64,000 nucleotides of DNA, from NCBI RefSeq assembly GCF_040939785.1, contig NZ_CP162553.1:2914001-2978000 (forward strand), in the 5' to 3' direction. Position 1 is the first letter of the stretch. Each line of letters begins with the position of its first letter. Position numbers and translations under genes: made by a program. Of the stretch, positions 46,375-62,700 are shown piece after piece. A model generated the notes under the pieces. The model was not told the DNA's origin and did not search any database. It saw only the letters and a program-made list of their open reading frames with translations. Origin of the DNA: Bradyrhizobium lupini. Lineage in GTDB: Bacteria > Pseudomonadota > Alphaproteobacteria > Rhizobiales > Xanthobacteraceae.

Positions 46375-46896
46375 TCAAAACTCGTTGGCGATCTTCGAGA
46401 GCATCCCGAGCAGGGCTTCGCGGTTGGACGGCCCGAGCAGCTCGTTCAGCCGGGCCTCGTGCTTGGTGGCGACGAGCTTCTTGGCGCGCGCCAGCACGGC
46501 CTTGCCCTTGTCGGTCAGCACCAGGATGTGCGAGCGGCGGTCGTTGGTGGAGCGGATCCGCGCGCAAAGGTCGCGGCTCTCGAGATTGTCGAGCATCGCC
46601 ACGAAATTCGGGCGCAGGATGCCGAGGGTGGAGGCGATCTCGGTCTGGTTACGGCCGGGGTTTTTCTCGACCAGCAGCAGCACGGAGAACTGCGCCGGCG
46701 TGAGCTGGAGCGAGGCCATGCAGCGCAGGAAGTTCTCGAACACCTTGAGCTGTGCCCGCTTCAGGACATAGCCGAGCTGCTCCGAGAGTTCGCCGAGCTG
46801 GAGGGCTTCGCCGGGCCCGTCGGCCGCGTCCTTGCGGCCCTTGGCTGTGTCGGCGGGTTTTTCAGAAGACTTTTCAGCGGTTTTGGAAACGGTCAT
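46375..46896 (-). CDS. couR: MarR family transcriptional regulator, CouR-like
   Basis: 173-residue winged-helix regulator. A low-complexity Lys/Ala-rich N-terminal tail (about 1-30) precedes the helical dimer domain LSEQLGYVLKRAQLKVFENFLRCMASLQLTPAQFSVLLLV. The DNA-binding part is RNQTEIASTLGILRPNFVAMLDNLESRDL, and the wing is RSTNDRRSHILVLTDKGKAVL. It is divergent from an aromatic-acid-type ABC operon in the same neighbourhood as a coumarate-type ligase, which is how the R. palustris CouR repressor, responsive to p-coumaroyl-CoA, is arranged. The identity is inferred from family and context. A motif shared with two other promoters lies 55 bases before its start. Confidence 0.75.
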   Translation of the reverse strand: MTVSKTAEKSSEKPADTAKGRKDAADGPGEALQLGELSEQLGYVLKRAQLKVFENFLRCMASLQLTPAQFSVLLLVEKNPGRNQTEIASTLGILRPNFVAMLDNLESRDLCARIRSTNDRRSHILVLTDKGKAVLARAKKLVATKHEARLNELLGPSNREALLGMLSKIANEF

Positions 46897-46950: not shown

Positions 46951-46965
46951 GTTATATTTGATAAT
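46951..46965 (+). promoter_or_regulatory. Candidate CouR-type operator 1 (regulator/ABC intergenic)
   Basis: GTTATATTTGATAAT fits GTTAT-N5-ATAA(C/T), found also at 54310-54324 and 58747-58761. A weaker second copy, GTTATGGACCATATC, is at 46967-46981. The region also holds an outer perfect inverted repeat ATATTTGATA/TATCAAATAT (46954-46963 and 46978-46987). Read on the minus strand, TATAAC within the site could be the regulator's -10. Confidence 0.6.
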
Positions 46966-47072
46966 TGTTATGGACCATATCAAATATCGTCAGCGCTGTT
47001 CAATGGCTGTGAGCGGACCGTCCACCACAATCAGGGGACCGGTCCTGAATCTTTGAGGGGGAGCGTCCGGTC

Positions 47073-48113
47073 TTGAATACCACCATCATGCTGTTCCTGC
47101 TGCAGGACGGCATCACCAATGGCGCAATCTATGCGCTGCTCGGCCTGGCGCTGGTGCTGGTGTTCGCCGTCACCCGCGTCATCCTCATTCCGCAAGGCGA
47201 ATTCGTCACCTATGGCGCGCTGACCTATGCCTCGCTGGCCGCGGGCCAGATGCCGGGTACGGCGAAACTCGCGCTCGCCCTCGGCATTGGCGCCTTCGCG
47301 TTCGACCTGTTCGCCGCGCGCAAGGCGCTGCACGGACGCCTGATCCTGCGCAGCGTCATCACCAATATCGTGCTGCCGGCCATCGTGCTGGCGCTGACCG
47401 TCTACTACGCCGCTCAGAAGCCGCCGGTTGCGGTCTGCATCGCGCTGTCACTGGTGATCGTGGCGATGATCGGCCTGTTTCTCTACCGCATCGCATTCCA
47501 GCCGCTGGCGCACACCTCCGTGCTGGTGCTGTTGATCGCCTCGGTGGGCGTCCACCTCGCCCTTCAGGGTTTGGGCCTTTTGTTCTTCGGCGCCGAAGGC
47601 CAGCGCGGACCTGCCGTGCTGTCCGGCTCTTTCACCACCGGTGCGCTGCGCTTCACCGGCCAGAGCATCACGGTCTATGGCATTACCATCGCTTTCATCG
47701 TCGGGCTGTGGCTGTTTTTCGGGCTGACGCTCTACGGCAAGGCACTGCGCGCGACCGCCGTGAACCGGCTCGGTGCCCGGCTCGTCGGCATCCGCACCAC
47801 GCTATCCGGGCAGATCGCCTTCCTGCTGGCGTCCGTCATCGGCGCACTGTCGGGCATCATGATCGTGCCGATCACGACGCTGTATTACGACTCGGGCTTC
47901 CTGATCGGCCTGAAGGGCTTTGTCGCCGCGATCATCGGCGGGCTTGTCAGCTACCCCCTCACCGCCGTCGCGGCGCTGGTCGTCGGCATCGTCGAGGCGT
48001 TCTCGTCCTTCTATGCCTCCAACTACAAGGAGGTGATCGTTTTCATGCTCTTGATTCCCGTGCTGCTGCTGCGCTCGCTCGCCGCGCCTGCGGTCGAGGA
48101 AGAGAAGGACTGA
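47073..48113 (+). CDS. Branched-chain-type ABC transporter permease (LivH-like) of the aromatic acid importer
   Basis: 346-residue membrane permease. The TTG at 47073 lies 10 bases after GAGGGGGAG; the next ATG (47088) is too far from that site, so TTG is preferred. It starts MNTTIMLFLLQDGITNGAIYALLGLALVLVFAVTRVI, with IPQGEFVTYGAL as the LivH-type motif. The ABC contact region is GKALRATAVNRLGARLVGIRTTLSGQIAFLLASVIGALSG. About eight to nine helices. It leads a tight four-gene set of permease, permease, ATPase, ATPase. In R. palustris an equivalent set imports hydroxycinnamates; that role here is inferred. Confidence 0.87.
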   Translation: MNTTIMLFLLQDGITNGAIYALLGLALVLVFAVTRVILIPQGEFVTYGALTYASLAAGQMPGTAKLALALGIGAFAFDLFAARKALHGRLILRSVITNIVLPAIVLALTVYYAAQKPPVAVCIALSLVIVAMIGLFLYRIAFQPLAHTSVLVLLIASVGVHLALQGLGLLFFGAEGQRGPAVLSGSFTTGALRFTGQSITVYGITIAFIVGLWLFFGLTLYGKALRATAVNRLGARLVGIRTTLSGQIAFLLASVIGALSGIMIVPITTLYYDSGFLIGLKGFVAAIIGGLVSYPLTAVAALVVGIVEAFSSFYASNYKEVIVFMLLIPVLLLRSLAAPAVEEEKD

Positions 48114-48120
48114 CGCCAAG

Positions 48121-49098
48121 ATGCAGAGCCGGCTCCCCATCCTCATCTTCGCGCTGATCATGGCGGCGATCCCGTTCGTTCCGGGCATGCCCCCATTCTG
48201 GATCGTGCTGCTCGACAATATCGGTCTCGCGGCCCTGGTCGCGATGGGCCTCGTGCTGCTGACCGGCGTCGGCGGCCTGACCTCGTTTGGACAAGCGGCC
48301 TTCGTCGGCTTCGGCGCCTACACCACTGCGGTGCTGTCGACGACCTACGGCATGTCGCCCTGGCTGACGCTACCGCTGTCGCTGGTGGTCAGCGGATTGC
48401 TGGCGGTGCTGCTCGGCCTCGTCACGGTCCGTCTCTCCGGTCATTATCTGCCGCTCGGCACGCTCGCCTGGGGACTCGGCTTGTTCTATCTCTTCAGCAA
48501 GCTGGAATTTTTGGGAAGAAACGACGGCATCTCGGCGATCCCGCCGCTGTCGATCGGCTCGTTCAAAATGCTCTCGCCCGGCTCGATCTACTACGCGATC
48601 TGGGTTGCCGTGATCCTCTCGGCGTTGCTCACAATGAACCTGCTGGACTCCCGCACCGGCCGCGCCATCCGCGCGCTCCGGCGCGGCCATGTCGCGGCCG
48701 AGGCGTTCGGCGTGCACACGCCGCGGGCGAAAATGCTGGTGTTCATCCATGCCGCCGTGCTCGCCGGCCTCTCCGGCTGGCTCTACGCCCATCTTCAACG
48801 CGCGGTGAACCCGACGCCGTTCGGCGCGCAGGCCGGCATCGAGTATCTCTTCATCGCCGTGGTCGGCGGCGCCGGCTATGTCTGGGGCGGCGTCCTGGGC
48901 GCGGCGCTCGTCGTGGTCCTGAAGGAAGTGCTGCAGAGCTACCTGCCGTTGATCCTGCCCGGCTCCGGCCAGGTTGAAACGATCGTGTTCGGCATCATGC
49001 TGGTGGCGCTGCTCCAGCTCGCACCCGGCGGCGTCTGGCCCTGGCTGATGTCGTTCCTGCCCCAGGCTACCGGTGGCAAAAGCCGGACACTTCGTTGA
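48121..49098 (+). CDS. Branched-chain-type ABC transporter permease (LivM-like) of the aromatic acid importer
   Basis: 325-residue membrane permease beginning 7 bases after the previous stop. Family signatures: LAALVAMGLVLLTGVGGLTSFGQAAFVGFGAYTTAVL, VRLSGHYLPLGTLAWGLGLFYL, SRTGRAIRALRRGHVAAEAFGVHTPRAKMLVFIHAAVLAG and FIAVVGGAGYVWGGVLGAALVVVL. About ten helices. It overlaps the ATPase gene by 4 bases (TTGA), so it is translationally coupled. It pairs with the preceding LivH-like permease. Confidence 0.88.
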   Translation: MQSRLPILIFALIMAAIPFVPGMPPFWIVLLDNIGLAALVAMGLVLLTGVGGLTSFGQAAFVGFGAYTTAVLSTTYGMSPWLTLPLSLVVSGLLAVLLGLVTVRLSGHYLPLGTLAWGLGLFYLFSKLEFLGRNDGISAIPPLSIGSFKMLSPGSIYYAIWVAVILSALLTMNLLDSRTGRAIRALRRGHVAAEAFGVHTPRAKMLVFIHAAVLAGLSGWLYAHLQRAVNPTPFGAQAGIEYLFIAVVGGAGYVWGGVLGAALVVVLKEVLQSYLPLILPGSGQVETIVFGIMLVALLQLAPGGVWPWLMSFLPQATGGKSRTLR

Positions 49099-49889
49099 AA
49101 CTGGAGCAGCGCACCCGCTCCCCCGGCCAATCCAGCGTCCTGCTCCAGGTCGAGAAGGCGCGGAAGCAATTTGGCGGCGTGGTCGCGGTGAACAACGTCT
49201 CCTTCGACGTTCAGGCTCGCGAGATCGTCGCGCTGATCGGCCCCAACGGCGCCGGCAAGAGCACCACCTTCAACCTGATCACCGGCGTGCTGTCCGCCAG
49301 CTCGGGCTCGATCTCCGTGCTCGGCAACAAGGTCGACAGGGCGCCGCCGCAGGAGATCGTCAAGCTCGGCATCTCCCGCACCTTCCAGCACGTCAAGCTG
49401 GTGCCTGATATGACCGTGCTGGAAAACGTCGCGATCGGCGCCCATCTGCGCGGCCATTCGGGGCCGATCTCCTCGATGCTGCGGCTCGACCGCACTGATG
49501 AGGCAAAGCTGCTCGCCGAAGCCGCCCGCCAGATCGAGCGCGTCGGACTTGGCGAGCAGATACATCAGCTCGCAGGCTCGCTCTCACTGGGACAGCAACG
49601 GATCGTCGAGATCGCCCGTGCGTTGTGCGTCGATCCGATGCTGCTGCTGCTCGACGAGCCGGCCGCCGGCCTGCGCCACATGGAGAAGGAGCGGCTCGCG
49701 ACGCTGCTGCGCGAGCTGCGCGACGGCGGCATGAGCGTCCTGCTGGTCGAGCACGACATGGGCTTCGTCATGAACCTCGCCGACCGCATCGTGGTGCTCG
49801 ATTTCGGCACCAAGATCGCGGAAGGAACGCCGGCCACGATCAAGACCAATCCCGAAGTGATCAAGGCCTATCTCGGAGTGGCGGCATGA
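49095..49889 (+). CDS. ABC transporter ATPase, LivG-like, of the aromatic acid importer
   Basis: 264 residues. The start is a TTG at 49095, overlapping the permease stop as TTGA; no ATG occurs before Walker A. N-terminal VLLQVEKARKQFGGVVAVNNVSF, Walker A GPNGAGKSTT, LivG-type GISRTFQHVKLVPDMTVLENVAIGAHL, signature LAGSLSLGQQRIVEIARAL (LSLGQ for LSGGQ), Walker B LLLLDEPAAGL and LVEHDMGFV. The closing NPEVIKAYLG is standard. It overlaps the next ATPase gene by 4 bases. Confidence 0.92.
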   Translation: MKLEQRTRSPGQSSVLLQVEKARKQFGGVVAVNNVSFDVQAREIVALIGPNGAGKSTTFNLITGVLSASSGSISVLGNKVDRAPPQEIVKLGISRTFQHVKLVPDMTVLENVAIGAHLRGHSGPISSMLRLDRTDEAKLLAEAARQIERVGLGEQIHQLAGSLSLGQQRIVEIARALCVDPMLLLLDEPAAGLRHMEKERLATLLRELRDGGMSVLLVEHDMGFVMNLADRIVVLDFGTKIAEGTPATIKTNPEVIKAYLGVAA

Positions 49890-50617
49890 GCGCGCTGTTG
49901 TCCGTCGCCAACGCCCATGTCGCATATGGCAAGGTCGAGGCCGTGCGCTCGGTCTCGCTCGAAGTCGGCCAGAACCAGATCGTCACCATCGTCGGCGCCA
50001 ACGGCGCCGGCAAGACCACGCTGCTCTCCGCCATCATCGGCATCTTGCCGCTGAAAGGGCGTGTTTCATTCGCAGGTCAGGACCTGTCGCGGCTCGACAT
50101 CGAGGACCGCGTCGCCATGGGGCTTGGCCTCGTTCCCGAGCACCGCGAATTGTTCGTGACCATGAATGTCGAGGACAATCTCGAGTTAGGGGCCTTCCGC
50201 ATCGAGAGAAGCAAGGCGAAAGCCTCGATGGAGCGGGTCTACACGCTGTTTCCGCGGCTCAAGGAGCGGCGCAAGCAGCTCGCCGGCACGCTCTCCGGCG
50301 GCGAGCAGCAGATGCTTGCAATGGGCCGCGCACTGATGGGCGAGCCCAAGCTCCTGATGCTGGACGAGCCGAGCCTCGGCCTCGCCCCGATCATCGTCGC
50401 CGACATTTTCCGCATCGTCACCGAACTGCGCGCCGCCGGCGTCTCCGTGCTGCTGGTCGAGCAGAACGCGCAGGCGGCATTGAAGATCGCGGATCAGGCC
50501 TATGTCATGGAGCTCGGCGAGTTCGTGCTCAGCGGCAAGGCCAGCGACATCGCGGCGAACGAGCGCGTGGCGGCGAGCTATCTCGGCTTCCAGCACGAAG
50601 GCGCGAGTGTGTTGTAG
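49886..50617 (+). CDS. ABC transporter ATPase, LivF-like, of the aromatic acid importer
   Basis: 243 residues from the ATG at 49886 (ATGA overlap). It starts MSALLSVANAHVAYGKVEAVRSVSL. Walker A is GANGAGKTT, then LGLVPEHRELFVTMNVEDNLELG, LSGGEQQMLAMGRALMG, LLMLDEPSLGLAPIIV and LLVEQNAQAALKIADQAYVMELG. It is the last gene of this four-gene block. No binding-protein gene follows; the likely partner is at 62779-63930, at the far end of the locus. Confidence 0.92.
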   Translation: MSALLSVANAHVAYGKVEAVRSVSLEVGQNQIVTIVGANGAGKTTLLSAIIGILPLKGRVSFAGQDLSRLDIEDRVAMGLGLVPEHRELFVTMNVEDNLELGAFRIERSKAKASMERVYTLFPRLKERRKQLAGTLSGGEQQMLAMGRALMGEPKLLMLDEPSLGLAPIIVADIFRIVTELRAAGVSVLLVEQNAQAALKIADQAYVMELGEFVLSGKASDIAANERVAASYLGFQHEGASVL

Positions 50618-50643
50618 TTTCGAGACGCTTCCTCAAACTCATC

Positions 50644-50765
50644 TGTCATCGTCCGCCTAGTGCGCAACTGCGCACAGGGGCGGACGATCCAGTATCCCAG
50701 AGACCGCTGTGCTGGAACCGAGACGCCGCGGCGTACTGGATGCCCCGCCTTCGCGGGGCATGACA
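50644..50765. repeat. Dispersed double-hairpin repeat, copy 2
   Basis: TGTCATCGTCCGCC pairs with GGCGGACGAT, followed by CCAGTATCCCAGAGAC, a variable middle, GCCGCGGCGTACTGGAT and hairpin GCCCCGCCTTCGCGGGGC ending ATGACA. Same family as 26030-26132 and 52964-53065. Confidence 0.85.
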
Positions 50766-50795
50766 TCGGTGGATTCGGGGAGGCGAAGAGGCCGC

Positions 50796-51409
50796 TCAAC
50801 TCGCTCCCTTCAGCCCCGCGACCTCCGCTTCCAGCTCCGCGATCTTCGCATCCCTTGCCGCCAGCGCCGCTGCCACATCCGTCGCGTCGAATTTTTGCGG
50901 GATGTGCTGCGGGCAGTTCGTGTCCCACGCTTCGATCTTGAACAGGATCACCTGCTCCGGCCGGGCGCGATAGCCTTTCGGCATCAGCGATGTCGTCAGC
51001 GCCTCGTCGTCCTCGACCACCCGCGCCTCGCCCCAGATCTTCACCCGGCGGCGATGGGCGTAGTCCATCACGAAGATGTAAGCCTTGGGGTTTTCGGACA
51101 GATTTCCCTGCGTGATGTATTGACGATTGCCCGCATAGTCCGTGAAGGCGAGCGTCTGCTTGTCCAGCACCTTCAAAACCCCTTCGGGCCGCCGCGATGC
51201 TGGATGTAGGGCTGGCCGTCGGCCGAGGCCGTGGCGAGATAGAAGCTGTTGGCGTCGGCCAGGAATGCCGCGAGGTTCTCATCGACCTCGGTGCGCCAGC
51301 CGCGCTGCTCGGCATGCGCATAGCCTTCGCGTGATCCCTTGCGGGTCTGGATCGACTTCACCGCCGGCGTGAACGCCACGTCGCTGGCGTAGGTGTGAGT
51401 TGCCGTCAT
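50796..51409 (-). pseudogene. Pyridoxamine 5'-phosphate oxidase family protein, frameshifted as written
   Basis: FMN-binding split-barrel protein of the PNPOx-related type. From the ATG at 51407-51409 it reads YASDVAFTPAVKSIQTRKGS, then FLADANSFYLATASADGQPYIQHRGGPKGF. It then stops because of a run of four A (plus strand) at 51175-51178. One base on, it continues KVLDKQTLAFTDYAGNRQYI and ENPKAYIFVMDYAHRRRVKIWGEARVV. The last part, DVAAALAARDAKIAELEAEVAGLK, is a short coiled coil. Repaired length is about 204 residues. Function is probably a flavin oxidoreductase of unknown substrate. Divergent from a LysR gene that is also frameshifted. Confidence 0.8.
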
Positions 51410-51529
51410 CGGAACGTCTCCTGAAATCCCGGCGCATCCCTTCGACTTCGCGATCTAAAGTGGACTTTTCGCAGGCTAAAACAATCGTCCCGCTTGACAC
51501 TTCATCATTGCGGTATAGGCAATAATGCC

Positions 51530-52413
51530 ATGGATCGCCTCGAAGCCATGCATGTTTTCGTCACCGTCGCCGACCTGCGCGGCTTCGCGCCGGCGGCGCG
51601 AAAACTGCGGCTGTCGCCCTCCGCGGTGACGCGGCTGATCGCGGCGCTGGAGGAGCATCTCGGCGCGCGGCTGTTGCAGCGGACCACCCGTCAAGTGACC
51701 CTGACCGACGTCGGCACGCGCTATCTGGAGCGCGTGCGTCGCATCCTGGCCGATGTCGAGGAGGCCGACGGCTCTGCACGGGAGGAGCGCAACCGGCCGA
51801 GCGGGCGGCTGGTGGTGTCGGCGCCGGTCGGCTTCGGCCGGCTCCATGTCGGGCCTGTCATGATCGCCTACCTCAAGCGCTATCCCGAGGTCGCTTGCGA
51901 ATTGCGGCTGTCGGACAATCTGGTCAATCTCGTGGAAGATGCCGTCGACGTCGCGGTGCGGATCGGCCATCTCGCCGACCCTCTCTCGTCGCGCGCCAGG
52001 TCGGCGAGATGCGGCGGATCGTGGTGGCGACACCTGGCTATCTCAAGCGCCATGGCGAGCCGAAGACGCCGGAGGCATTGCTCGGGCACCAGACCATCGC
52101 CTTCGGTCCATCCGCGAACTGGCGCTTCGTGCAGGACGGCCGCGACATCGAGGTGGCGCCGAATCCACGCTTCGCCAGCAACAGCGCCGACGCCGCCCTG
52201 CAATATGCCGAGGCGGGCGGCGGCGTGACCCGGGTGCTGGCCTATCAGGCTGCCGAGGGCCTGCGGCGCGGGCGGCTCAGAATCGTGTTGGCGAAATACG
52301 AGCAGCCGGCGTTGCCGATCCACATCGTCTACCCGACCTCGCGCCTGCTCTCCGCCAAGGTGCGCGCCTTCGTCGATCTCGTGGTGGAGACCGCGGAGTG
52401 GAAATTCGGGTGA
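51530..52413 (+). pseudogene. LysR family transcriptional regulator, frameshifted as written
   Basis: The ATG at 51530 gives MDRLEAMHVFVTVADLRGFAPAARKLRLSPSAVTRLIAAL, a normal LysR helix-turn-helix. RLLQRTTRQVTLTDVGTRYLERV follows, then the effector domain RLVVSAPVGFGRLHVGPVMIAYLKRYPEVACELRLSDN. At CCC (51979-51981) the frame is lost. One base on, it resumes SLVARQVGEMRRIVVATPGYLKRHG, NSADAALQYAEAGGGVTRVLAYQA and a normal end at 52413. The repaired protein is about 294 residues. It is divergent from the PNPOx-like gene, the usual LysR-target arrangement. Confidence 0.82.
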
Positions 52414-52418
52414 CGCCC

Positions 52419-52838
52419 TCACCCCTTCTTCGGCACGACGCGAAAGGTGCCGCTGGCGCGGGCGATCACGGCGCCGTCGGCCTTCGCGAGGCACTGCGCG
52501 AAACAGATCGTGCTGCCGGTCTTGATCGCCTCACCCTCGACCGCGAGCCATTGGCCGATCTCGCCGGCGCCGACATAGTCGACCGACAGCGAGATCGTGA
52601 CCAACGAGGTCGTCCAGCCCGTCGCCTGCGCGCAGCTGTAGCCCATGGCGGCATCGGCCAGCGCCGCGATCAGGCCGCCATGGATCAGCCCGCGCGCGTT
52701 GGTGTGCGGTTTCGCCAGCCGCAATCCCACGGTGACGCCGTTGTCGGTCTTCCTGGAGTAAAGCGGCTCCCAGGGATCGGTGAGCGGGGCTTTGCGAAAG
52801 TGCGGCTCGAAGCCGGCGGGAATGTCGGTGCTGGTCAT
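52419..52838 (-). CDS. PaaI family (hotdog) thioesterase
   Basis: 139-residue acyl-CoA thioesterase of the hotdog fold. The core helix motif is NARGLIHGGLIAALADAAMGYSC, with the HGG and the following Asp typical of the PaaI/HGG group, followed by the strand TTSLVTISLSVDYVGAG. The C-terminal strand is AVIARASGTFRVVPKKG. Such enzymes remove stalled CoA thioesters, often aromatic ones, and would suit the surrounding aromatic locus. It converges with the LysR gene, 5 bases apart. Confidence 0.85.
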   Translation of the reverse strand: MTSTDIPAGFEPHFRKAPLTDPWEPLYSRKTDNGVTVGLRLAKPHTNARGLIHGGLIAALADAAMGYSCAQATGWTTSLVTISLSVDYVGAGEIGQWLAVEGEAIKTGSTICFAQCLAKADGAVIARASGTFRVVPKKG

Positions 52839-52963
52839 GTCCGTCTCGCGTTGGTGGCTCCCGCCATTGAACGCGGCAGACGGGACAGATGCACCACCTA
52901 CAAAGTTTTAAACGGAATTTGCGCGGGTGTTTGAAAGGAGTGGCGCCGTCGCCCCGCTATCCC

Positions 52964-53065
52964 TGTCATCACCCGCGAAAGCGGGTGATCCAGTATTCCA
53001 GAGACGGTGACGTGATACGGAGAGGCCGCGGCGTACTGGATGCCCCGCTTTCGCGGGGCATGACG
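52964..53065. repeat. Dispersed double-hairpin repeat, copy 3
   Basis: Hairpin ATCACCCGC/GCGGGTGAT, then CCAGTATTCCAGAGACGGTG, GCCGCGGCGTACTGGAT and hairpin GCCCCGCTTTCGCGGGGC. Outer ends are TGTCAT and ATGACG. It sits directly behind the pobA stop on the minus strand and may also serve as its transcript end. Confidence 0.85.
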
Positions 53066-53072
53066 GCGCGCC

Positions 53073-54409
<1,337 letters not shown>

Positions 54410-54456
54410 GAGACCGGGCCATCGAAGCCCGCCGTCAAAAGAGGGAGAGACGCGTG

Positions 54457-55473
54457 ATGAGAAAAGCCTGTCTGGCGTTGCTGCTGGCAGCAAGCGTGAG
54501 CCCTGCGTTCGCGCAGGACAAGACCTTCGATTTGAAGATCTCGCACTGGGTGCCGGCCTCGCATCCGCTGCAGAAATCGCTGGAGGACTGGGCTGCCGCG
54601 GTCGAGAAGGATTCCGGCGGCACCATCAAGGGCAAGGTGTTTCCGGCCCAGCAGATGGGCAAGGCGTTCGATCATTATGACATGGCGCGCGACGGCATCG
54701 CCGACGTCACCTATGTCAATCCCGGCTACCAGCCCGGCCGTTTCCCGATCATCGGCGCCGGCGAATTGCCATTCCTGATCTCGGATGCCAAGGGCGGCTC
54801 GATGGGGCTCGACGCCTGGTACCGCAAATACGCCGAGAAGGAGATGAAGGACGTCAAATACTGCCTCGCCTTCGTCCACTCGCCCTCCTCCTTCCATTCC
54901 CGCACCAAGAAGATCGTGATGCCGGAGGACGTGAAGGGCCTGAAGATCCGCCCCGCCCACGCCACCATGGCGAACTTCGTCACCTCGCTCGGCGGCACCA
55001 ATGTGCAATCCTCCGCGCCCGAAGTGCGCGACATCATCGAGCGCGGCGTCGCCGATGGCGTCACCTTCCCCTGGGGCTCGCTGGTGCTGTTCGGCATCGA
55101 CAAGGTGACCAAATACGACATGGAGGCGCCGCTCTACACCACGACCTTCGTGTTCGTCATGAACAAGGACAAGTACAATGCGATGTCCGACAAGCAGAAG
55201 GCCGCGATCGACAAGAATTGCACGGTCGAAATGGCAGGCGTGGTCGGCGAGCACTGGGGCAAGTTCGAGGATGCCGGCATCGACAAGGTCAAGGCGGAGT
55301 CCGGTCACGAGGTCTACAAGCTGACGCCCGAGCAGACCGCGGCCTGGAAGAAGGCCGCCGAGCCGCTGGTGAAGACCTGGAGTGACGGCGCGAAGAAGAC
55401 CGGCGTGGATCCGGACGCGGCGCTTAGCGAGCTGAAGGCCTCGCTGAAGAAGTACAACGCGCTGGCGGAGTGA
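54457..55473 (+). CDS. tarP: TRAP transporter substrate-binding protein (DctP family), TarP-like
   Basis: 338-residue periplasmic binding protein from the ATG at 54457 (a GTG three bases earlier is possible; GAGGGAGAG lies just upstream). Signal peptide about 1-20 ends SPAFAQ. The DctP fold shows as KISHWVPASHPLQKSLEDWAAAVEKDSGG, KVFPAQQMGKAFDHYDMARDGIADVTYVNPGY, IVMPEDVKGLKIRPAHATMANFVTSLGG with the carboxylate-binding Arg, and GVADGVTFPWGSL. In R. palustris TarP binds p-coumarate and related cinnamates. The neighbouring coumarate genes support the same ligand class here. Confidence 0.83.
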   Translation: MRKACLALLLAASVSPAFAQDKTFDLKISHWVPASHPLQKSLEDWAAAVEKDSGGTIKGKVFPAQQMGKAFDHYDMARDGIADVTYVNPGYQPGRFPIIGAGELPFLISDAKGGSMGLDAWYRKYAEKEMKDVKYCLAFVHSPSSFHSRTKKIVMPEDVKGLKIRPAHATMANFVTSLGGTNVQSSAPEVRDIIERGVADGVTFPWGSLVLFGIDKVTKYDMEAPLYTTTFVFVMNKDKYNAMSDKQKAAIDKNCTVEMAGVVGEHWGKFEDAGIDKVKAESGHEVYKLTPEQTAAWKKAAEPLVKTWSDGAKKTGVDPDAALSELKASLKKYNALAE

Positions 55474-55490
55474 AGCTGCGACGCGATCGG

Positions 55491-55646
55491 CCTCTCCTCC
55501 CCTCTCTCCGTCTTTACGGGGAGAGGGGTGGGGTGAGGGGCCGCTTCCGCAAGATAGAGTGAGAGATGGACTCGTGGAGAGTCCCCTCACCCGACCGCAT
55601 CTACGATGCGATGCGGCCTCTCTCCGCACGCGGGGAGAGGCGAGGA
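55491..55646. repeat. Compound hairpin repeat between TRAP binding-protein and permease genes
   Basis: CCTCTCTCCGTC and GGGGAGAGGGG on the left, CCCCTCACCCGACCGC and GGCCTCTCTCCGCACGCGGG on the right; the two sides oppose each other. It fills most of the 220-base gap 55474-55693 and has no gene. Confidence 0.65.
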
Positions 55647-55693
55647 GCAGCAGCCGAGTCGAGAACGAGAATGACATCACCTAGGACACTCCC

Positions 55694-56203
55694 ATGAAGC
55701 GCGCCTGGATGGATCGCGTGATCGATTCGATCGAGTGGATCGCAGCCGGCTTCGTCGGCATCGTCGCGCTCGACATCTTCCTCTCGGTGTTGCTGCGCAA
55801 CACGCTGAACTATGCGATCCCCGATAGTTTCGACATCGGCCGCATGCTGCTCGGCATCCTCATCTTCTGGGGCATCGCCGCGACCTCCTATCGCGGCACC
55901 CACATCACTGTCGACCTCGTCTGGGGCAATGTCGGGCCGCGCTACCAGCGCTGGATCGACGTGTTCGCGACCCTGGTGCTGCTGTTCGTCGTGACGGTGC
56001 AGACCTGGACGCTGTTCGACAAGGTCCGCGGCACCTACAACGACAACGTCCAAACCTTCGACATGCACATGCCGACCTGGCCGTTCTTCGCGATCGCCTG
56101 GATCGGCGACGTCTCCGCCGTGCTGCTGATCGCGATCCGCACCTACCGGTTGATCTTCCATCCCGAAGAGATGCACGACCCCAAGCTGAAGGCGACGGAG
56201 TAA
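55694..56203 (+). CDS. tarQ: TRAP transporter small permease (DctQ family), TarQ-like
   Basis: 169-residue inner-membrane protein with four predicted helices: about 15-35 (IEWIAAGFVGIVALDIFLSVLL), 50-70 (IGRMLLGILIFWGIAATSY), 90-110 (WIDVFATLVLLFVVTVQTW) and 133-153 (FFAIAWIGDVSAVLLIAIRTY). The segment YRGTHITVDLVWGNVGPRYQ between helices 2 and 3 is the DctQ hallmark. It is two bases from the large permease gene, so the two are one unit. Confidence 0.88.
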   Translation: MKRAWMDRVIDSIEWIAAGFVGIVALDIFLSVLLRNTLNYAIPDSFDIGRMLLGILIFWGIAATSYRGTHITVDLVWGNVGPRYQRWIDVFATLVLLFVVTVQTWTLFDKVRGTYNDNVQTFDMHMPTWPFFAIAWIGDVSAVLLIAIRTYRLIFHPEEMHDPKLKATE

Positions 56204-56205
56204 TC

Positions 56206-57525
56206 ATGAGCACCGATGCCGTCGCCGTTATCGGCTTCGTTTCCCTGTTCGCGTTGATGCTGCTGCGCGTGCCCGTCGGCATGGCCATGGGCCTCGTCGG
56301 CGTCTCCGGCTTCTCCTATCTCGTTGGCGCCACGCCGGCGCTGAAGCTGGTCGGCCAGACCTCGATGCGCACGGTGACCGACTACACCTTCGGCGTCATT
56401 CCGATGTTTTTGCTGATGGGCTCCTTCGTCAGCAATTCCGGCATGAGCCGCGAACTGTTCCGCGCCGCCAACGGCTTTGTCGGCCATTTGCGCGGCGGAC
56501 TCGGCATCGCCACCGTCGGCGCCTGCGGCGGCTTTGCCGCGATCTGCGGCTCCTCGGTCGCGACCGCCGCGACCTTCTCCGCGGTCGCTTACCCCGAGAT
56601 GCGCCGCTTCGGCTATCCGCAGTCGTTTGCCACCGGCGTGATCGCGGCCGGCGGCACGCTGGGTGCGATGCTGCCGCCCTCCACCGTGCTCGCCGTCTAC
56701 GGCATCATCACCGAGCAGGACATCGGCAAGCTGTTCATCGCCGGCATCATCCCGGGCATCCTGGCGATGACCATGTACATGATCACGATCTTCCTGATCG
56801 GTTATTTCCGGCCCGACTTCCTGCCCAAGGGCAAGGAGCTGCCGTGGCGCGAGCGCTTCGCCGGCCTGAAGGACATCTGGGCGCCGGTGCTGCTGTTCGT
56901 GTTCGTGATCGGCGGCCTTTACGGCCTGCCCTATTTGCCGCGCTTCACGCCGACGGAAGCGGGCGGCGTCGGCGCCGCCGGCGCCTTCATCATCGGCGTG
57001 GCGACCGGCCGGCTCGACCGCGAGAAGATTCTGGCGTCGCTGCTCCAGGCGACGCGCACGGCCGCCGCCGTGTTCACCGTGCTGATCGGCGCCTTGATCT
57101 TCGGCTATTTCCTCACGGTGACGCAGACCCCGCAAAAGGTGACGGAATTCCTCACCGGCCTCGGTCTCGGCCCCTACGGCGTGCTGGCGCTGATCATGGT
57201 GATGTATCTCGTGCTCGGCTGCCTGATGGACGCCATGGCGATGATCATCCTCACCGTGCCGATCATCTTCCCCGTGATCATGCATCTCGGTTTCGACCCG
57301 ATCTGGTTCGGCGTCATCATCGTCATGACGGTCGAGCTCGGCCTGATCCATCCGCCGGTGGGCATGAACGTCTTTGTCATCAAGAGCGTGGTGAAGGACG
57401 TTTCCTTCTCCACCATCTTCAAGGGCGTGATTCCGTTCGTGGCGACAGACCTGGTGCGCCTGGTGATCCTGATCGCCTTCCCGCTGCTGGCGACGTGGTT
57501 GCCGACGCGGATGATGGCGCATTGA
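56206..57525 (+). CDS. tarM: TRAP transporter large permease (DctM family), TarM-like
   Basis: 439-residue channel subunit with roughly twelve membrane segments. DctM family motifs: IPMFLLMGSFVSNSGMSRELFRAANGFVGHLRGGLGIATVGACGGFAAICGSSVATAATF, here cited only by its key GGFAAICGSS core. Others are AGGTLGAMLPPSTVLAVYGIITE, GCLMDAMAMIILTVPIIFP and LGLIHPPVGMNVFVIKSVV. It uses the ion gradient together with TarQ and the binding protein to import organic acids. Twelve bases precede the DUF3237 gene. Confidence 0.92.
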   Translation: MSTDAVAVIGFVSLFALMLLRVPVGMAMGLVGVSGFSYLVGATPALKLVGQTSMRTVTDYTFGVIPMFLLMGSFVSNSGMSRELFRAANGFVGHLRGGLGIATVGACGGFAAICGSSVATAATFSAVAYPEMRRFGYPQSFATGVIAAGGTLGAMLPPSTVLAVYGIITEQDIGKLFIAGIIPGILAMTMYMITIFLIGYFRPDFLPKGKELPWRERFAGLKDIWAPVLLFVFVIGGLYGLPYLPRFTPTEAGGVGAAGAFIIGVATGRLDREKILASLLQATRTAAAVFTVLIGALIFGYFLTVTQTPQKVTEFLTGLGLGPYGVLALIMVMYLVLGCLMDAMAMIILTVPIIFPVIMHLGFDPIWFGVIIVMTVELGLIHPPVGMNVFVIKSVVKDVSFSTIFKGVIPFVATDLVRLVILIAFPLLATWLPTRMMAH

Positions 57526-57537
57526 GGAGGTGAAGCG

Positions 57538-57999
57538 ATGACCACGCCGTCGCTGGAAACCAGATACGTCTTTACCGTCACCGCACGCATCGGCGACGTC
57601 GTCACCGCCGGCGAGACCGGTATCGGCATTCGCCGCATCATCCCGATCGTCGGCGGCGAGGTGACGGGTGCGATCACCGGCAAGGTGCTGCCGTTCGGCG
57701 CGGACTTCCAGACCATCCGCCCGAATGAGCTGATTGATCTCGAAGCGAAGTACGCGTTCCAAACCGATGACGGCGCCACCGTCTATGTCGAGAACAAGGG
57801 CATGCGCTTCGGCCCGGTCGAGCTGTTGCAAAAGCTCAAGCGCGGCGAGCCGGTGGATCCCAAACTGATCTATTTCCGCACCGTGCCGAAGTTCGAGACC
57901 GGGCATGAGAAATACCGCTGGCTGATGCAGCACATTTTTGTCGGTTCAGCAGCCCGGCATGCGGACCGCGTCGTGATCGACGTGCATCAGGTGATGTGA
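57538..57999 (+). CDS. DUF3237 domain-containing protein
   Basis: 153 residues, cytoplasmic, with no signal peptide. It reads SLETRYVFTVTARIGDVVTAG, IGIRRIIPIVGGEVTGAITGKVLPFGADFQTIRP, DLEAKYAFQTDDGATVYVENKGMRFG and, near the end, YFRTVPKFETGHEKYRWLMQHIFVG. These match the DUF3237 beta-barrel family, often found near aromatic or lipid catabolic genes. No reaction is established to my knowledge. It follows the TRAP genes by 12 bases, so it is probably co-transcribed and may act on a hydroxycinnamate intermediate. That last point is conjecture. Confidence 0.8.
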   Translation: MTTPSLETRYVFTVTARIGDVVTAGETGIGIRRIIPIVGGEVTGAITGKVLPFGADFQTIRPNELIDLEAKYAFQTDDGATVYVENKGMRFGPVELLQKLKRGEPVDPKLIYFRTVPKFETGHEKYRWLMQHIFVGSAARHADRVVIDVHQVM

Positions 58000-58004
58000 G
58001 TTCA

Positions 58005-58039
58005 TTGACGAGCACGGGCAAATGTGTATAAATACACAT
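58005..58039 (+). promoter_or_regulatory. hicAB promoter with palindromic operator
   Basis: -35 TTGACG (58005-58010), 16 bases, -10 TATAAA (58027-58032). A perfect palindrome ATGTGTAT-AA-ATACACAT (58022-58039) covers the -10 box and ends one base before the hicA ATG at 58041. The HicB ribbon-helix-helix would be the expected ligand. Transcription would begin within about three bases of the ATG. Confidence 0.75.
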
Positions 58040-58040
58040 C

Positions 58041-58229
58041 ATGAATGACCGGGAAATTATCTCGGTCCTTCAAAGAGATGGCTGGGTCCAAGTGGCTCAG
58101 AAGGGCAGCCACGTCCAGTTCAAGCACCCCGCGAAGCAGGGCCGGGTCACGGTCCCTCATCCGAAGCGGGACGTCCCTCTCGGAACACTGAAGAGTATTG
58201 AAAAGCAATCCGGCCTGAAGCTGAGGTAA
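58041..58229 (+). CDS. hicA: HicA family mRNA interferase toxin
   Basis: 62-residue HicA/YcfA-like toxin, a small double-stranded-RNA-binding fold that cleaves mRNA. MNDREIISVLQRDGWVQVAQ leads to GSHVQFKHP, where the His is the expected catalytic residue, then GRVTVPHPKRDVPLGTLKSIEKQSGL. Full length for the family. There is no Shine-Dalgarno before the ATG and the promoter lies right against it, so it may be translated from a leaderless mRNA. The antitoxin gene follows after five bases. Confidence 0.92.
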   Translation: MNDREIISVLQRDGWVQVAQKGSHVQFKHPAKQGRVTVPHPKRDVPLGTLKSIEKQSGLKLR

Positions 58230-58234
58230 GCGCC

Positions 58235-58633
58235 ATGCGCCACTACATTGGTCTTATCCATAAGGACGCCGACAGCGATTTCGGCGTGTCGTTTCCCGAT
58301 CTGCCCGGCCTCGTGACCGCAGGAACCACGCTCGACGAGGCACGCGACATGGCCGAGGAAGCGCTGGCGCTTCACCTCGAGGGGATGGCGGAGGACGGCG
58401 AACCGATCCCAGAGCCTTCCTCACTCGAAGATATCATGTCCAAGCCCGAGAACCGCTCGGGCGTCGCCATTCTGGTCTCGATGAAGGACGATCTGCCGAA
58501 GGTCGTGCGCGTCAATGTCACCTTGCCGGGTGATGTCCTGGAGCAAATTGACAAATACGCCGAGGCCCACGGCTACACGCGATCGGGCCTGCTTGCTCAG
58601 GCCGCGAAGAAGCTGATGACCGACGCAGCCTGA
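58235..58633 (+). CDS. hicB: HicB family antitoxin with ribbon-helix-helix domain
   Basis: 132 residues. The N-terminal HicB-like degenerate RNase H fold reads HYIGLIHKDADSDFGVSFPDLPGLVTAGTTLDEARDMAEEALALHLEGM. The C-terminal DNA-binding ribbon-helix-helix (about 88-130) is VVRVNVTLPGDVLEQIDKYAEAHGYTRSGLLAQAAKKLM. It would neutralise HicA and autorepress through the palindrome at 58022-58039. GAGG lies upstream of its ATG, unlike hicA, so the antitoxin may be translated more efficiently. Confidence 0.92.
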   Translation: MRHYIGLIHKDADSDFGVSFPDLPGLVTAGTTLDEARDMAEEALALHLEGMAEDGEPIPEPSSLEDIMSKPENRSGVAILVSMKDDLPKVVRVNVTLPGDVLEQIDKYAEAHGYTRSGLLAQAAKKLMTDAA

Positions 58634-58725
58634 GGCGCTCCACGTATTGCGCCGAATGCGGCGCCCAATTGGCTGACGTTTTCCCGTTTCGAAGGAGGCT
58701 TCGAAGCGCAACGGCGGGACTTCCC

Positions 58726-58761
58726 TTGTTGACTCCCCCTGAATTCGTTATACAACATAAC
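58726..58761 (+). promoter_or_regulatory. Promoter and candidate CouR-type operator 3 of the crotonase-ligase operon
   Basis: TTGTTG (58726-58731), 17 bases, TATACA (58749-58754). The motif GTTATACAACATAAC (58747-58761) overlaps the -10 and start point and is a perfect 5-bp inverted repeat (GTTAT/ATAAC). It lies 19 bases before the ATG, a position suited to repression. Confidence 0.65.
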
Positions 58762-58780: not shown

Positions 58781-59590
58781 ATGACACAGGGAAACGCCGA
58801 GACCGCTGACGCGGGCGCCTCCGGGCTTTTGAAGATCGAGCGGGCGGACCGGGTTTTGACCGTCGGCCTCAATCGGCCGGCCAAGCGCAATGCGCTCAAC
58901 GACGGCATCATCCTGGAGATCGGCGAGTGTTTTGCGGCCCTGCCCGAGGATATCGGCGCCGTCGTCATCCACGGCATCGGCGACCATTTTTCCAGCGGTC
59001 TCGACCTCTCCGAACTGACCGACCATGATGCCAGTGGCGGCCTTCTCCATTCCCAGATGTGGCACCGGGTGTTCGACCGCATCCAGTACAGCCGCGTGCC
59101 TGTGATCGCCGCGCTCAGGGGCGCCGTGATCGGAGGCGGGCTGGAGCTCGCCTGCGCGGCGCATATCCGTGTCGCCGAACCCTCGACCTATTTCGCGCTG
59201 CCGGAGGGGCAGCGCGGCATCTTCGTCGGTGGCGGCGGTTCGGTGCGCCTGCCGCGCCTGATCGGCGTCGCCAGGATGATGGACATGATGCTGACCGGCC
59301 GCGTCTATTCCGCGACCGAAGGCACCTCCTACGGCTTTGCGCAATATGTCACGGAAGCCGGCAACGGGCTCGGCAAGGCGATGGAGCTTGCGACCAAGGT
59401 CGCCTCCAACGCGCCGCTGACCAACTTCGCCGTGCTCCAGGCGCTGCCGATGATCGCGGAGGCCAATCCGCAGACCGGCCTGTTGATGGAATCGCTGATG
59501 GCGACGGTGGCGCAGAGCGACAAAGAGGCAAAACGCAGGATCCGCGAGTTCCTCGAACACAAGACCGCAAAGGTGAAGCCGAAATCATGA
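58781..59590 (+). CDS. couA: Crotonase family hydroxycinnamoyl-CoA hydratase (CouA-like)
   Basis: 269-residue crotonase, ATG at 58781 after AAGGA. Oxyanion-hole segments are HFSSGLDLSEL and ALRGAVIGGGLELACAAH. Both hydratase glutamates are present: E122 in GGGLEL and E142 in LPEGQRG. It is the first gene before an aryl-CoA ligase with ATGA overlap, the R. palustris couA-couB order, so it should hydrate the double bond of p-coumaroyl- or feruloyl-CoA. Pseudomonas hydratase-lyases have Ser in place of the first Glu; this protein does not, which argues for plain hydration. The substrate is inferred from context. Confidence 0.8.
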   Translation: MTQGNAETADAGASGLLKIERADRVLTVGLNRPAKRNALNDGIILEIGECFAALPEDIGAVVIHGIGDHFSSGLDLSELTDHDASGGLLHSQMWHRVFDRIQYSRVPVIAALRGAVIGGGLELACAAHIRVAEPSTYFALPEGQRGIFVGGGGSVRLPRLIGVARMMDMMLTGRVYSATEGTSYGFAQYVTEAGNGLGKAMELATKVASNAPLTNFAVLQALPMIAEANPQTGLLMESLMATVAQSDKEAKRRIREFLEHKTAKVKPKS

Positions 59591-61496: not shown

Positions 61497-62258
61497 ATGT
61501 TGTTGAAGGATCAGGCTGTCATCGTCACGGGCGGCGCGTCGGGACTGGGCGCGGCGACCGCGCGTAAGCTGGCGGCGCAGGGCGCCAGGGTCGCGGTGTG
61601 CGACCTCAATGCCAAGCTCGCCAAAACTGTCGCCGCCGAGATCAAGGGCGTGGCTGTGGCTTGCGACGTCTCCGATGCGGCTTCCGCTGAGGCTGCGATC
61701 GCCCAAGCGACCAAGTCCCATGGACCCGCGCGCGTGCTGGTCAATTGCGCCGGCATCGGCGTTGCCAAGCGCGTCGTCGGCCGCGACGGCCCGATGGCGC
61801 TCGCCGATTTCGACAAGGTGATCAAGGTCAATTTGATCGGCACCTTCAACATGCTCCGCCTTGCCGCGAACGAGATGTCCAAGCTCGAGCCGCAGGCAAC
61901 CGGCGAGCGCGGCGTCATCATCAACACGGCATCCGTTGCCGCTTATGACGGCCAGATCGGGCAATCGGCCTATTCGGCCTCCAAGGGCGGCATCGTCGGC
62001 ATGACGCTGCCGATCGCGCGCGAGCTGGCGCAGTTCGGCGTCCGCGTGCTGACGATCGCGCCCGGCCTGTTCCTCACGCCGCTGCTCGCCAACCTGCCGC
62101 AGGAAGCCCAGGACTCGCTCGCCGCCGCGATCCCGTTCCCGCGCCGGCTCGGCCACGCCGACGAGTTCGCGGCGCTCGCCCTGCACATGGTCGAGAATTC
62201 CTACCTCAACGGCGAAGTGGTGCGCCTCGACGGCTCGCTGCGCATGGCGCCGAAATAG
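61497..62258 (+). CDS. SDR family 3-hydroxyacyl-CoA dehydrogenase-like protein
   Basis: 253-residue classical SDR resembling the 17-beta-HSD10/3-hydroxyacyl-CoA dehydrogenase type 2 group. [37 protein letters not shown] holds the NAD site with an acidic residue ending strand 2 (NAD preference). [17 protein letters not shown], the Ser of [14 protein letters not shown] and YSASKGG provide the catalytic triad; [15 protein letters not shown] follows. It starts 26 bases after the ligase with AGGGAG upstream. After the crotonase it would oxidise the beta-hydroxyl of the phenylpropionyl-CoA, as in beta-oxidative hydroxycinnamate routes. The reaction is inferred. Confidence 0.82.
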
Positions 62259-62268
62259 GGCGCGGCAT

Positions 62269-62700
62269 ATGTTCGTGAACCGGCGCGACGTCCAGATCCA
62301 GTGGGGTGACTGCGACCCCGCCAACATCGTCTATTACCCGCGTTATTTCGCGATGTTCGACGATTCGACGTCGACCCTGTTCGAAGTCGCCGGCTTCTCC
62401 AAGCAGGACCTGGTCAAGAAATACGGCCTGGTGGGCATTCCCATGGTCGATACACGCGCCAAGTTCTACATCCCCTCGACTTATGGCGACTGGATCACCA
62501 TCGAAACCAAGATCGAGAGCATCAAGCGCTCGAGCTTCGAGGTGAAGCACAGCGTCTTCAAGGGCGAGGCGCTGGCGATCGAGGGTTTCGAGACCCGTGT
62601 CCTGGTCGGGCGCGACCCCGTTAACCCCGACAAACTGAAATCGGCACCGTTTCCTGCGGAAATGGTAGCCAAATTCACGGGGAGCGAGGCCCGGAGCTAA
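62269..62700 (+). CDS. Hotdog-fold 4-hydroxybenzoyl-CoA-type thioesterase
   Basis: 143-residue acyl-CoA thioesterase of the Pseudomonas 4-hydroxybenzoyl-CoA thioesterase family. VQIQWGDCDPANIVYYPRYFAMFDDSTSTLF contains the catalytic Asp in GDCDPANIVYYPRYF, the 4HBT signature. VDTRAKFYIPSTYGDWITIETKIESIKRSSFEVKHSV follows. Ten bases separate it from the SDR. It would release 4-hydroxybenzoate or vanillate from CoA after side-chain cleavage, giving the substrate of PobA. Specific for aryl-CoA by family only. Confidence 0.85.
   Translation: MFVNRRDVQIQWGDCDPANIVYYPRYFAMFDDSTSTLFEVAGFSKQDLVKKYGLVGIPMVDTRAKFYIPSTYGDWITIETKIESIKRSSFEVKHSVFKGEALAIEGFETRVLVGRDPVNPDKLKSAPFPAEMVAKFTGSEARS

What the first reader, a model, noticed from the sequence alone, without database searches (positions are those of the whole stretch)
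46951..58761. A shared GTTAT-N5-ATAA(C/T) motif at three promoters defines a candidate CouR-type regulon
The 15-base sites GTTATATTTGATAAT (46951-46965), GTTATATGATATAAT (54324-54310, minus strand) and GTTATACAACATAAC (58747-58761) stand before the MarR/ABC operon, pobA and the crotonase-ligase operon. In the last two the site overlaps the -10 box. The motif is AT-rich in a GC-rich genome; with an assumed 65% GC, the nine fixed bases would be expected by chance well under once in this window. pobA control by a hydroxycinnamoyl-CoA sensor would couple ring hydroxylation to side-chain catabolism.
Basis: partly seen in the sequence, partly recalled or inferred. Interest (0 to 1): 0.75.

Follow-up and report, generated by a model that had tools for sequence, protein, structure and literature searches.

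The report
CouR regulon reaching to ring cleavage
A short palindromic DNA switch, very probably read by a repressor that senses activated plant p-coumaric acid, sits before not three but five sets of genes in this soil bacterium, so that uptake, side-chain removal and opening of the aromatic ring are probably switched on together.

Summary
In detail: three sites at the stated places, 0.01 expected. The MarR gene is an ortholog of Rhodopseudomonas palustris CouR (72.8% identity to PDB 6c28). With at most two mismatches the site is at couR in 37 of 37 genomes (tandem pair in 35), at couA in 35 of 35, and at pobA in 28 of 35 genomes with a CouR ortholog against 2 of 20 without. In the 80 closest named loci, 79 titled Bradyrhizobium, it is at 80 of 80 couR and 48 of 48 scorable pobA promoters. 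Genome-wide the strict pattern has 8 sites; two outside the window precede pcaHG and an Amidohydro_2 gene and are conserved in the genus (25 of 26 and 29 of 29 scored promoters). That amidohydrolase is in 33 of 35 CouR genomes and, at 84% identity or more, in none of 114 others. Best reading: one CouR regulon from uptake through side-chain removal and ring hydroxylation to ring cleavage. A second pobA-pcaHG set beside an AraC-type regulator has no such site before its pobA. Binding, ligand and sign of control are not shown here.

The parts
46375..46896 (-). couR: MarR-family repressor, ortholog of R. palustris CouR
   Evidence: PDB 6c28, E 3.3e-67; 72.8% identity over 169 residues; Pfam MarR
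46951..46965 (+). operator site 1 of the tandem pair in the couR/couS divergent region
   Evidence: pair in 35 of 37 genomes and in the 80 closest named loci
46967..46981 (+). operator site 2 (one mismatch), 16 bp from site 1
47073..50617 (+). LivHMGF-type ABC transporter genes (couSTU-like), divergent from couR; start of the last gene not fixed
   Evidence: R. palustris couPSTU is reported as CouR-controlled (PMC3610893 passages)
52419..52838 (-). PaaI-like hotdog thioesterase downstream of pobA, same strand
   Evidence: near pobA or tarP in many of the 40 loci
53073..54242 (-). pobA (4-hydroxybenzoate 3-monooxygenase), probable TTG start at 54242
   Evidence: TIGR02360 705 bits, cut-off 539; start and ribosome site
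54310..54324 (-). operator site in the pobA/tarP divergent region; its right half is a TATAAT on pobA's strand
54454..57525 (+). tarPQM-like TRAP transporter: binding protein and two membrane subunits
   Evidence: 7nqg 410 bits for the binding protein
57538..57999 (+). DUF3237 protein of unknown function between tarM and couA
   Evidence: PF11578
58747..58761 (.). operator site before couA, perfect GTTAT-N5-ATAAC palindrome, 20-34 nt before the ATG
   Evidence: site within one mismatch in 35 of 35 genomes
58781..59590 (+). couA: crotonase-fold enzyme, by context the hydroxycinnamoyl-CoA hydratase
   Evidence: NF006013, PF00378
59587..61470 (+). couB: AMP-binding acyl-CoA synthetase, by context the hydroxycinnamate-CoA ligase
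61497..62258 (+). short-chain dehydrogenase, by context the 3-hydroxyacyl-CoA dehydrogenase of the route
62269..62700 (+). 4HBT-like thioesterase
62779..63930 (+). couP-like periplasmic binding protein
   Evidence: matches 3tx6/4f8j/4fb4 at 672 bits and 4jb0/4jb2 at 670 bits; that these include R. palustris CouP is recalled

Best explanation
The 15-bp element GTTAT-N5-ATAAC/T is the operator of the CouR protein encoded at 46375-46896. CouR dimers sit on it and, because it overlaps or lies near the -10 region, block transcription. When p-coumarate is taken up and activated by CouB, p-coumaroyl-CoA releases CouR, which opens five promoter regions at once: couR/couSTU (tandem operator, so autoregulated), pobA with tarPQM, couAB-dehydrogenase-thioesterase-couP, and, elsewhere on the chromosome, an Amidohydro_2 gene (probably the hydrolase that cuts the beta-keto-CoA intermediate, like R. 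jostii CouO) and pcaHG. One sensor of the first pathway intermediate thus switches on uptake, side-chain removal, ring hydroxylation and ring cleavage in advance. Shown here: the sites, their conservation, the orthology of the regulator, the genes behind the sites. Inferred: binding, ligand, sign of control, the amidohydrolase's reaction.
For: CouR orthology: 6c28, E 3.3e-67, 72.8% over 169 residues; residues NPGRNQTE-A-TLGI-RPNFV, in and around the DNA-binding region, are invariant in 11 aligned orthologs. In R. palustris CouR is reported to control couAB, couPSTU and tarPQM and to answer p-coumaroyl-CoA (PMC3610893 passages). Footprint (at most 2 of 10 fixed bases wrong in 400 bp; mononucleotide-shuffled promoters reach this in about 3-6%): couR 37 of 37, couA 35 of 35, pobA 28 of 35 with a CouR ortholog versus 2 of 20 without and 1 of 7 pobA paralogs (Fisher p 5e-7 for 28/35 vs 2/20, not corrected for kinship). 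The 80 closest named loci of 231: 80 of 80 couR, 48 of 48 scorable pobA. In the genus: amidohydrolase 29 of 29 and pcaH 25 of 26 scored promoters. Strict pattern genome-wide: 24 of 32 distinct sites in five genomes of the genus and 10 of 11 in four Rhodopseudomonas-like genomes are at these promoters. The amidohydrolase is in 33 of 35 CouR genomes and 0 of the other 114 at 84% identity or more. RpCouR's binding sequence is given as 31 bp with 32% GC (PMC9594313 passage); the tandem in G125, whose CouR is 90.7% identical to 6c28, is 31 bp with 32% GC, but in the other four genomes of its genus it is 23-29%: circumstantial only.
Against: No binding or expression data. The published R. palustris operator letters could not be read (papers not held). 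In this genome alone the motif count (9 strand matches) is hardly above the reversed control (7). G053 has a perfect match before pcaH and G025 a one-mismatch match before pobA, though neither has a CouR-like match at E 1e-30; G131 has a two-mismatch match before pobA. Eight CouR genomes lack a convincing pobA site: G114, G141 and the six of genus g40, of which G129 is among the 28 only through a match at -300. 16 of 25 pcaH promoters in CouR genomes of the family lack a site (Fisher p 0.03 for pcaH). 10 of 33 amidohydrolase promoters in CouR genomes lack it: all six of genus g26, both of g6, G114 and G043. In the four Rhodopseudomonas-like genomes with a site, it is 47-48 nt from the tarP match and 107-124 nt from the pobA match, so control of pobA there is less sure.
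Confidence: 0.86

Rival explanations
1. The pobA-side site is only the operator of the divergent tarPQM transporter; pobA is a bystander.
For: tarPQM is a reported CouR target in R. palustris; in four Rhodopseudomonas-like genomes the site is 47-48 nt from tarP; where pobA lies elsewhere (genus g40), pobA has no convincing site and the region upstream of tarP keeps one or two in G112, G129 and G072.
Against: In G065, G087, G059 and G043 no tarP was found beside pobA and the site is still before pobA; but other genes face it there (a couP-like gene in G065 and G087, DUF3237 in G043), and only in G059 does the facing couA have a separate site of its own with nothing else detected between. In the window the site holds a TATAAT on pobA's strand and lies about 130 nt from the tarP start, which has a conserved island of its own at 54389-54409.
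Confidence: 0.15
2. Another regulator with the same motif (a MarR paralog or a local LysR) reads the pcaHG and amidohydrolase sites.
For: Family genomes hold CouR-like proteins of 41-53% identity; G053 has a perfect site before pcaH without a CouR-like match.
Against: The own genome has a single CouR-like match at E 1e-30; the sites share half-sites and 5-base spacing; the amidohydrolase tracks CouR over 149 genomes. The window's LysR was found in only 3 of the 40 loci, while the sites are kept in far more.
Confidence: 0.09
3. The elements are just AT-rich -10 boxes, not operators.
For: Three of the five main sites of this genome (pobA, pcaH, amidohydrolase) end in TATAAT.
Against: The left half GTTAT is kept at fixed spacing (counts); 22 of 35 couA sites are perfect palindromes and 25 end in C; 18 of 20 pobA promoters without a CouR ortholog and 6 of 7 pobA paralogs have no site; the reversed pattern is rare in eight of nine genomes.
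Confidence: 0.03

Closest known systems
CouR regulon of Rhodopseudomonas palustris
   Same: orthologous repressor (the 35 orthologs are 67-91% identical to 6c28); couAB, couPSTU and tarPQM as reported targets (PMC3610893 passages); similar gene neighbourhood in Rhodopseudomonas-like genomes
   Different: In Bradyrhizobium pcaHG is added; the five Rhodopseudomonas-like genomes had no pcaH match at E 1e-70. Sites before pobA/tarP (4 of 5) and the amidohydrolase (5 of 5 within two mismatches) occur in those genomes too; whether this is in print I could not check, since the 2012 and 2018 papers are not held.
CouR of Rhodococcus jostii RHA1
   Same: MarR repressor of hydroxycinnamate catabolism released by p-coumaroyl-CoA; the route ends with an amidohydrolase-superfamily enzyme, CouO (PMC4737184 passages)
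   Different: box cATTGA-N5-TCAATg; about 25% identical to the R. palustris protein per PMC4737184, 36% per PMC9594313
AraC-type control of pobA
   Same: controls a pobA gene; in this genome an AraC-family gene is divergent from the second pobA, with a second pcaHG near (the domain search was on the G024 copy)
   Different: that pobA has no such motif here; the first pobA lies at the cou locus with a CouR site. That AraC-type PobR proteins sense 4-hydroxybenzoate is recalled.

Membership tests
R. palustris-type CouR regulator | orthologous MarR protein | tested here: met
R. palustris-type CouR regulator | gene divergent from couSTU-type ABC genes, near couAB and tarPQM | tested here: met
R. 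palustris-type CouR regulator | operator identical to the published R. palustris site | tested here: inconclusive
   letters not readable; length and GC agree for one relative, G125
R. palustris-type CouR regulator | binds p-coumaroyl-CoA, which releases it from DNA | not testable with these tools
   needs protein and ligand
CouR regulon (pobA) | conserved operator at the promoter in CouR genomes, missing without CouR | tested here: met
   28 of 35 vs 2 of 20; some controls hold distant CouR-like proteins; 8 CouR genomes lack a convincing site
CouR regulon (pcaHG) | conserved operator at the promoter | tested here: met
   25 of 26 scored promoters in the genus, but 9 of 25 over the CouR genomes of the family
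CouR regulon (amidohydrolase) | conserved operator and co-occurrence with CouR | tested here: met
   23 of 33; 29 of 29 in the genus
R. jostii-type CouR | box cATTGA-N5-TCAATg | tested here: not met
   box from PMC4737184; the sites here read GTTAT-N5-ATAAC/T
CouO (beta-ketoacyl-CoA hydrolase) | amidohydrolase superfamily | tested here: met
   PF04909, 203 bits
CouO (beta-ketoacyl-CoA hydrolase) | sequence orthology to RHA1 CouO, and the activity | not tested

The most novel reading that the evidence does not exclude
In Bradyrhizobium a single sensor of p-coumaroyl-CoA commands the whole route from uptake to ring cleavage at five scattered promoter regions, including the unassigned beta-keto-CoA hydrolase about 1.74 Mb away and pcaHG about 0.48 Mb away. 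A second pobA-pcaHG set next to an AraC-type regulator serves free 4-hydroxybenzoate. The duplicated lower pathway would then be split by the origin of the same intermediate.
Probability: 0.5. Interest if true: 0.62.

Novelty: new variant of a known kind. Interest (0 to 1): 0.52.

Why it matters
Hydroxycinnamates are major plant and root phenolics, and Bradyrhizobium is an important soil and nodule genus. If right, one regulator whose ortholog has a solved structure and a known ligand explains coordinated control of uptake, side-chain and ring metabolism. It names a candidate for the unassigned beta-keto-CoA cleavage step and predicts that duplicated 4-hydroxybenzoate enzymes are split by the origin of their substrate. 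Each claim can be tested with one protein, five DNA fragments and one deletion strain.

Tried and rejected
Chance or base composition: rejected for the window and for conservation, although in this genome alone the motif total is near its reversed control. The remaining strict sites of this genome: L002 and L008 are copies of a dispersed repeat that also holds the relaxed-pattern sites L300-L302, and L001 is alone, so no further regulon members are claimed. Extra strict sites in G024 (1), G105 (3), G122 (1) and G067 (1) were not shared among those looked at; I looked around five of the six, G105 C166 gave no locus; one precedes a DoxX gene. Sigma-70 scans: nothing at pobA/tarP or couA, one weak match before couS. 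Literature: no held paper has both words CouR and pobA. Searches showed no report of a CouR regulon in Bradyrhizobium in the listed papers (at most 20 per search were listed, of up to 312; I saw titles and abstract starts, and passages of PMC4737184, PMC9594313, PMC3610893, PMC12366328 and PMC4943940). The key R. palustris papers (Hirakawa 2012, Phattarasukol 2012, Cogan 2018) are not held, so pobA or the amidohydrolase may already be in their tables.

Limits of the counts: positions run from starts of protein matches, not from mapped transcripts. 'With CouR ortholog' means a match of 68% identity or more (35 of 149 genomes; the next is 53%); several 'without' genomes hold CouR-like proteins of 41-50%, and two genomes with such distant proteins (G074 52%, G041 48%) have good sites at couA and couR and are included in 37 and 35. 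Two CouR genomes (G065, G087) had no couA match at E 1e-90. The 20 pobA and 17 pcaH controls were picked by me among the better matches, not all of them. The 80 named loci are the best 80 of 231, so close relatives. In one search one pcaH locus of 27 and one amidohydrolase locus of 30 were dropped because a contig end cut them, and the 31st amidohydrolase match had no locus; both sets include the own genome and G024. Fisher tests ignore kinship and use counts typed.
Full report
WHAT WAS CHECKED. The expected number from dinucleotide shuffles is 0.01. With one mismatch allowed, a second site appears at 46967-46981, 16 bp from the first; a perfect 10-bp inverted repeat (46954-46963 and 46978-46987) spans the pair.

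WHAT THE NEIGHBOURS ARE. The MarR gene matches R. palustris CouR (PDB 6c28, E 3.3e-67; 72.8% over 169 residues). The ABC genes, TRAP genes, crotonase, AMP-binding ligase, short-chain dehydrogenase, thioesterase and a periplasmic binding protein with close solved relatives (670 bits; that these are hydroxycinnamate binders such as CouP is recalled) make this a cou locus. pobA is TIGR02360. Its start is probably TTG at 54242 behind GGGAGGAG, which puts the site 68-82 nt upstream with TATAAT as its right end. In R. palustris, couAB, couPSTU and tarPQM are reported as CouR-controlled (passages of PMC3610893). CouR proteins answer p-coumaroyl-CoA (passages of PMC9594313 and PMC4737184). I read passages only, not whole papers.

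WHOLE GENOME. The window lies in a 7.83-Mb genome in one contig. Of the 80 best CouR loci in named genomes, 79 carry the name Bradyrhizobium; the other is titled Frankia at 92% identity. The strict motif has 8 distinct sites in the own genome. Three are the window's. One is 52-66 nt upstream of pcaH, with pcaG behind it (TIGR02422 and TIGR02423 above cut-off); upstream of it lie an intradiol dioxygenase gene and pcaF. One is 30-44 nt before an Amidohydro_2 gene. Two are in copies of a dispersed repeat and one is alone. Counted by strands the motif gives 9 and its reversed control 7 in this genome, so the total is not the argument; what lies behind the sites and their conservation are.

FOOTPRINTING. 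Of 149 genomes of the family, 35 have a CouR match of 68% identity or more. I located pobA, pcaH, couA, tarP and the amidohydrolase in the same 149, fetched upstream stretches and scored the best GTTAT-N5-ATAAC match in 400 bp. With at most two mismatches: couR 37 of 37 (35 orthologs and two distant ones; 36 with at most one mismatch), with a second site exactly 16 bp away in 35 of 37; couA 35 of 35 (33 CouR genomes and the two distant ones); pobA 28 of 35; amidohydrolase 23 of 33 with CouR and 0 of 1 without; pcaH 9 of 25. Controls: pobA in genomes without a CouR ortholog 2 of 20; second pobA copies 1 of 7; pcaH without a CouR ortholog 1 of 17. Mononucleotide-shuffled promoters reach two mismatches in about 3 to 6% of cases. 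One of the 28 pobA matches (G129) is at -300 and probably chance.

INSIDE THE GENUS. In the 80 named loci the tandem is before couR in 80 of 80, and all 48 whose stretch holds the pobA start have the pobA site (35 with one mismatch, 13 with two). In an even draw of 31 genomes of the genus, 26 have this pcaH and all 31 the amidohydrolase. Of the loci that could be scored, 25 of 26 pcaH promoters (25 genomes, one of them with two copies) and 29 of 29 amidohydrolase promoters have the site within one mismatch, and in the alignments it is among the best conserved stretches of the promoter. The strict pattern run over four more genomes of the genus gives 24 distinct sites, 19 at these promoters; with the own genome, 24 of 32. 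In four genomes whose CouR is 83-91% identical to that of R. palustris it gives 11 sites, 10 of them at couA, pobA/tarP or amidohydrolase promoters.

MECHANISM. A repressor dimer on a 15-bp palindrome at or near the -10 box fits the MarR pattern. At couR two boxes 16 bp apart, about one and a half turns, would put two dimers on nearly opposite faces; that is geometry, not a measurement. The pobA/tarP box could serve both directions. In the window it is nearer pobA and about 130 nt from tarP; in four Rhodopseudomonas-like genomes it is nearer tarP. In G065, G087, G059 and G043 pobA has a box without tarP beside it; other genes face it there, most clearly separated in G059, where couA has its own box. 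So pobA is probably a target in its own right.

PATHWAY READING. CouB activates p-coumarate, CouA hydrates it, the dehydrogenase oxidises it, and a further enzyme must cut the beta-keto-CoA ester. In R. jostii that last step is done by CouO, an amidohydrolase-superfamily enzyme (passage of PMC4737184). In R. palustris the literature seen describes a non-beta-oxidative cleavage by way of the aldehyde (passages of PMC4943940 and PMC12366328), so which route operates in Bradyrhizobium is open; the dehydrogenase gene favours the keto route. The amidohydrolase with a CouR box, present in 33 of 35 CouR genomes and in none of the other 114 at 84% identity or more (seven others have relatives of 61-76%), is the natural candidate. 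It has no NCBIfam name and its only PDB match is an uncharacterised protein (3irs). 4-Hydroxybenzoate then goes to PobA and PcaHG, both with boxes. So the first CoA ester would announce all later steps.

TWO LOWER PATHWAYS. The own genome and G024 hold a second pobA divergent from an AraC-family gene, with a second pcaHG close by; these pobA copies have no box, and the second pcaHG promoters were not scored. A split by substrate origin is my inference.

WHAT SPEAKS AGAINST. pcaHG boxes are nearly confined to the genus: among CouR genomes outside it only three of six g40 genomes have one, with two mismatches. Genomes without a CouR-like match can have a good box (G053 at pcaH, G025 at pobA). 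Ten of 33 CouR genomes lack a box at the amidohydrolase and eight of 35 a convincing one at pobA. No binding data exist here, and the R. palustris operator could not be read in print.

VERDICT. The finding is right, and larger than described. The kind is known (CouR regulon); the reach to pcaHG and the amidohydrolase is not reported in the papers that my searches listed.

Noticed in passing
window 54389-54409: A second conserved island TAGATAACATGTTAATTAACG just before tarP, distinct from the CouR box; probably tarP's own promoter or another operator.
   Followed up: partly
window 57538-57999: DUF3237 protein of unknown function between tarM and couA, found in most of the 40 loci; may have a role in the route.
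   Followed up: no
L361 6625-11026 (own genome 2128624-2133025): Second pobA divergent from an AraC-type gene, with a second pcaHG close by; no CouR box before this pobA.
   Followed up: partly
L002, L008, L300, L301, L302: Dispersed repeat family in the own genome whose copies carry AT-rich look-alikes of the motif; L301 and L302 share 1759 identical bases.
   Followed up: no
L071, L072, L074: In genus g40 a PaaI-like thioesterase gene stands in pobA's place facing tarP, with one or two boxes between, while pobA lies elsewhere.
   Followed up: partly
L160 (G025), L155 (G053): Good boxes before pobA and pcaH in genomes without a CouR-like match at E 1e-30: relics, chance or another regulator.
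   Followed up: no
L231: A record titled Frankia sp. RB7 holds a Bradyrhizobium-like cou locus with 92% identical CouR; probably mislabelled.
   Followed up: no
window 58235-58633: Small ORF resembling HicB (recalled; not run against a library) just upstream of the couA operator; found in only one of the 40 loci (L042).
   Followed up: no
window 51512-51526: One-mismatch match of the motif at the 5' end of the LysR-type ORF.
   Followed up: no
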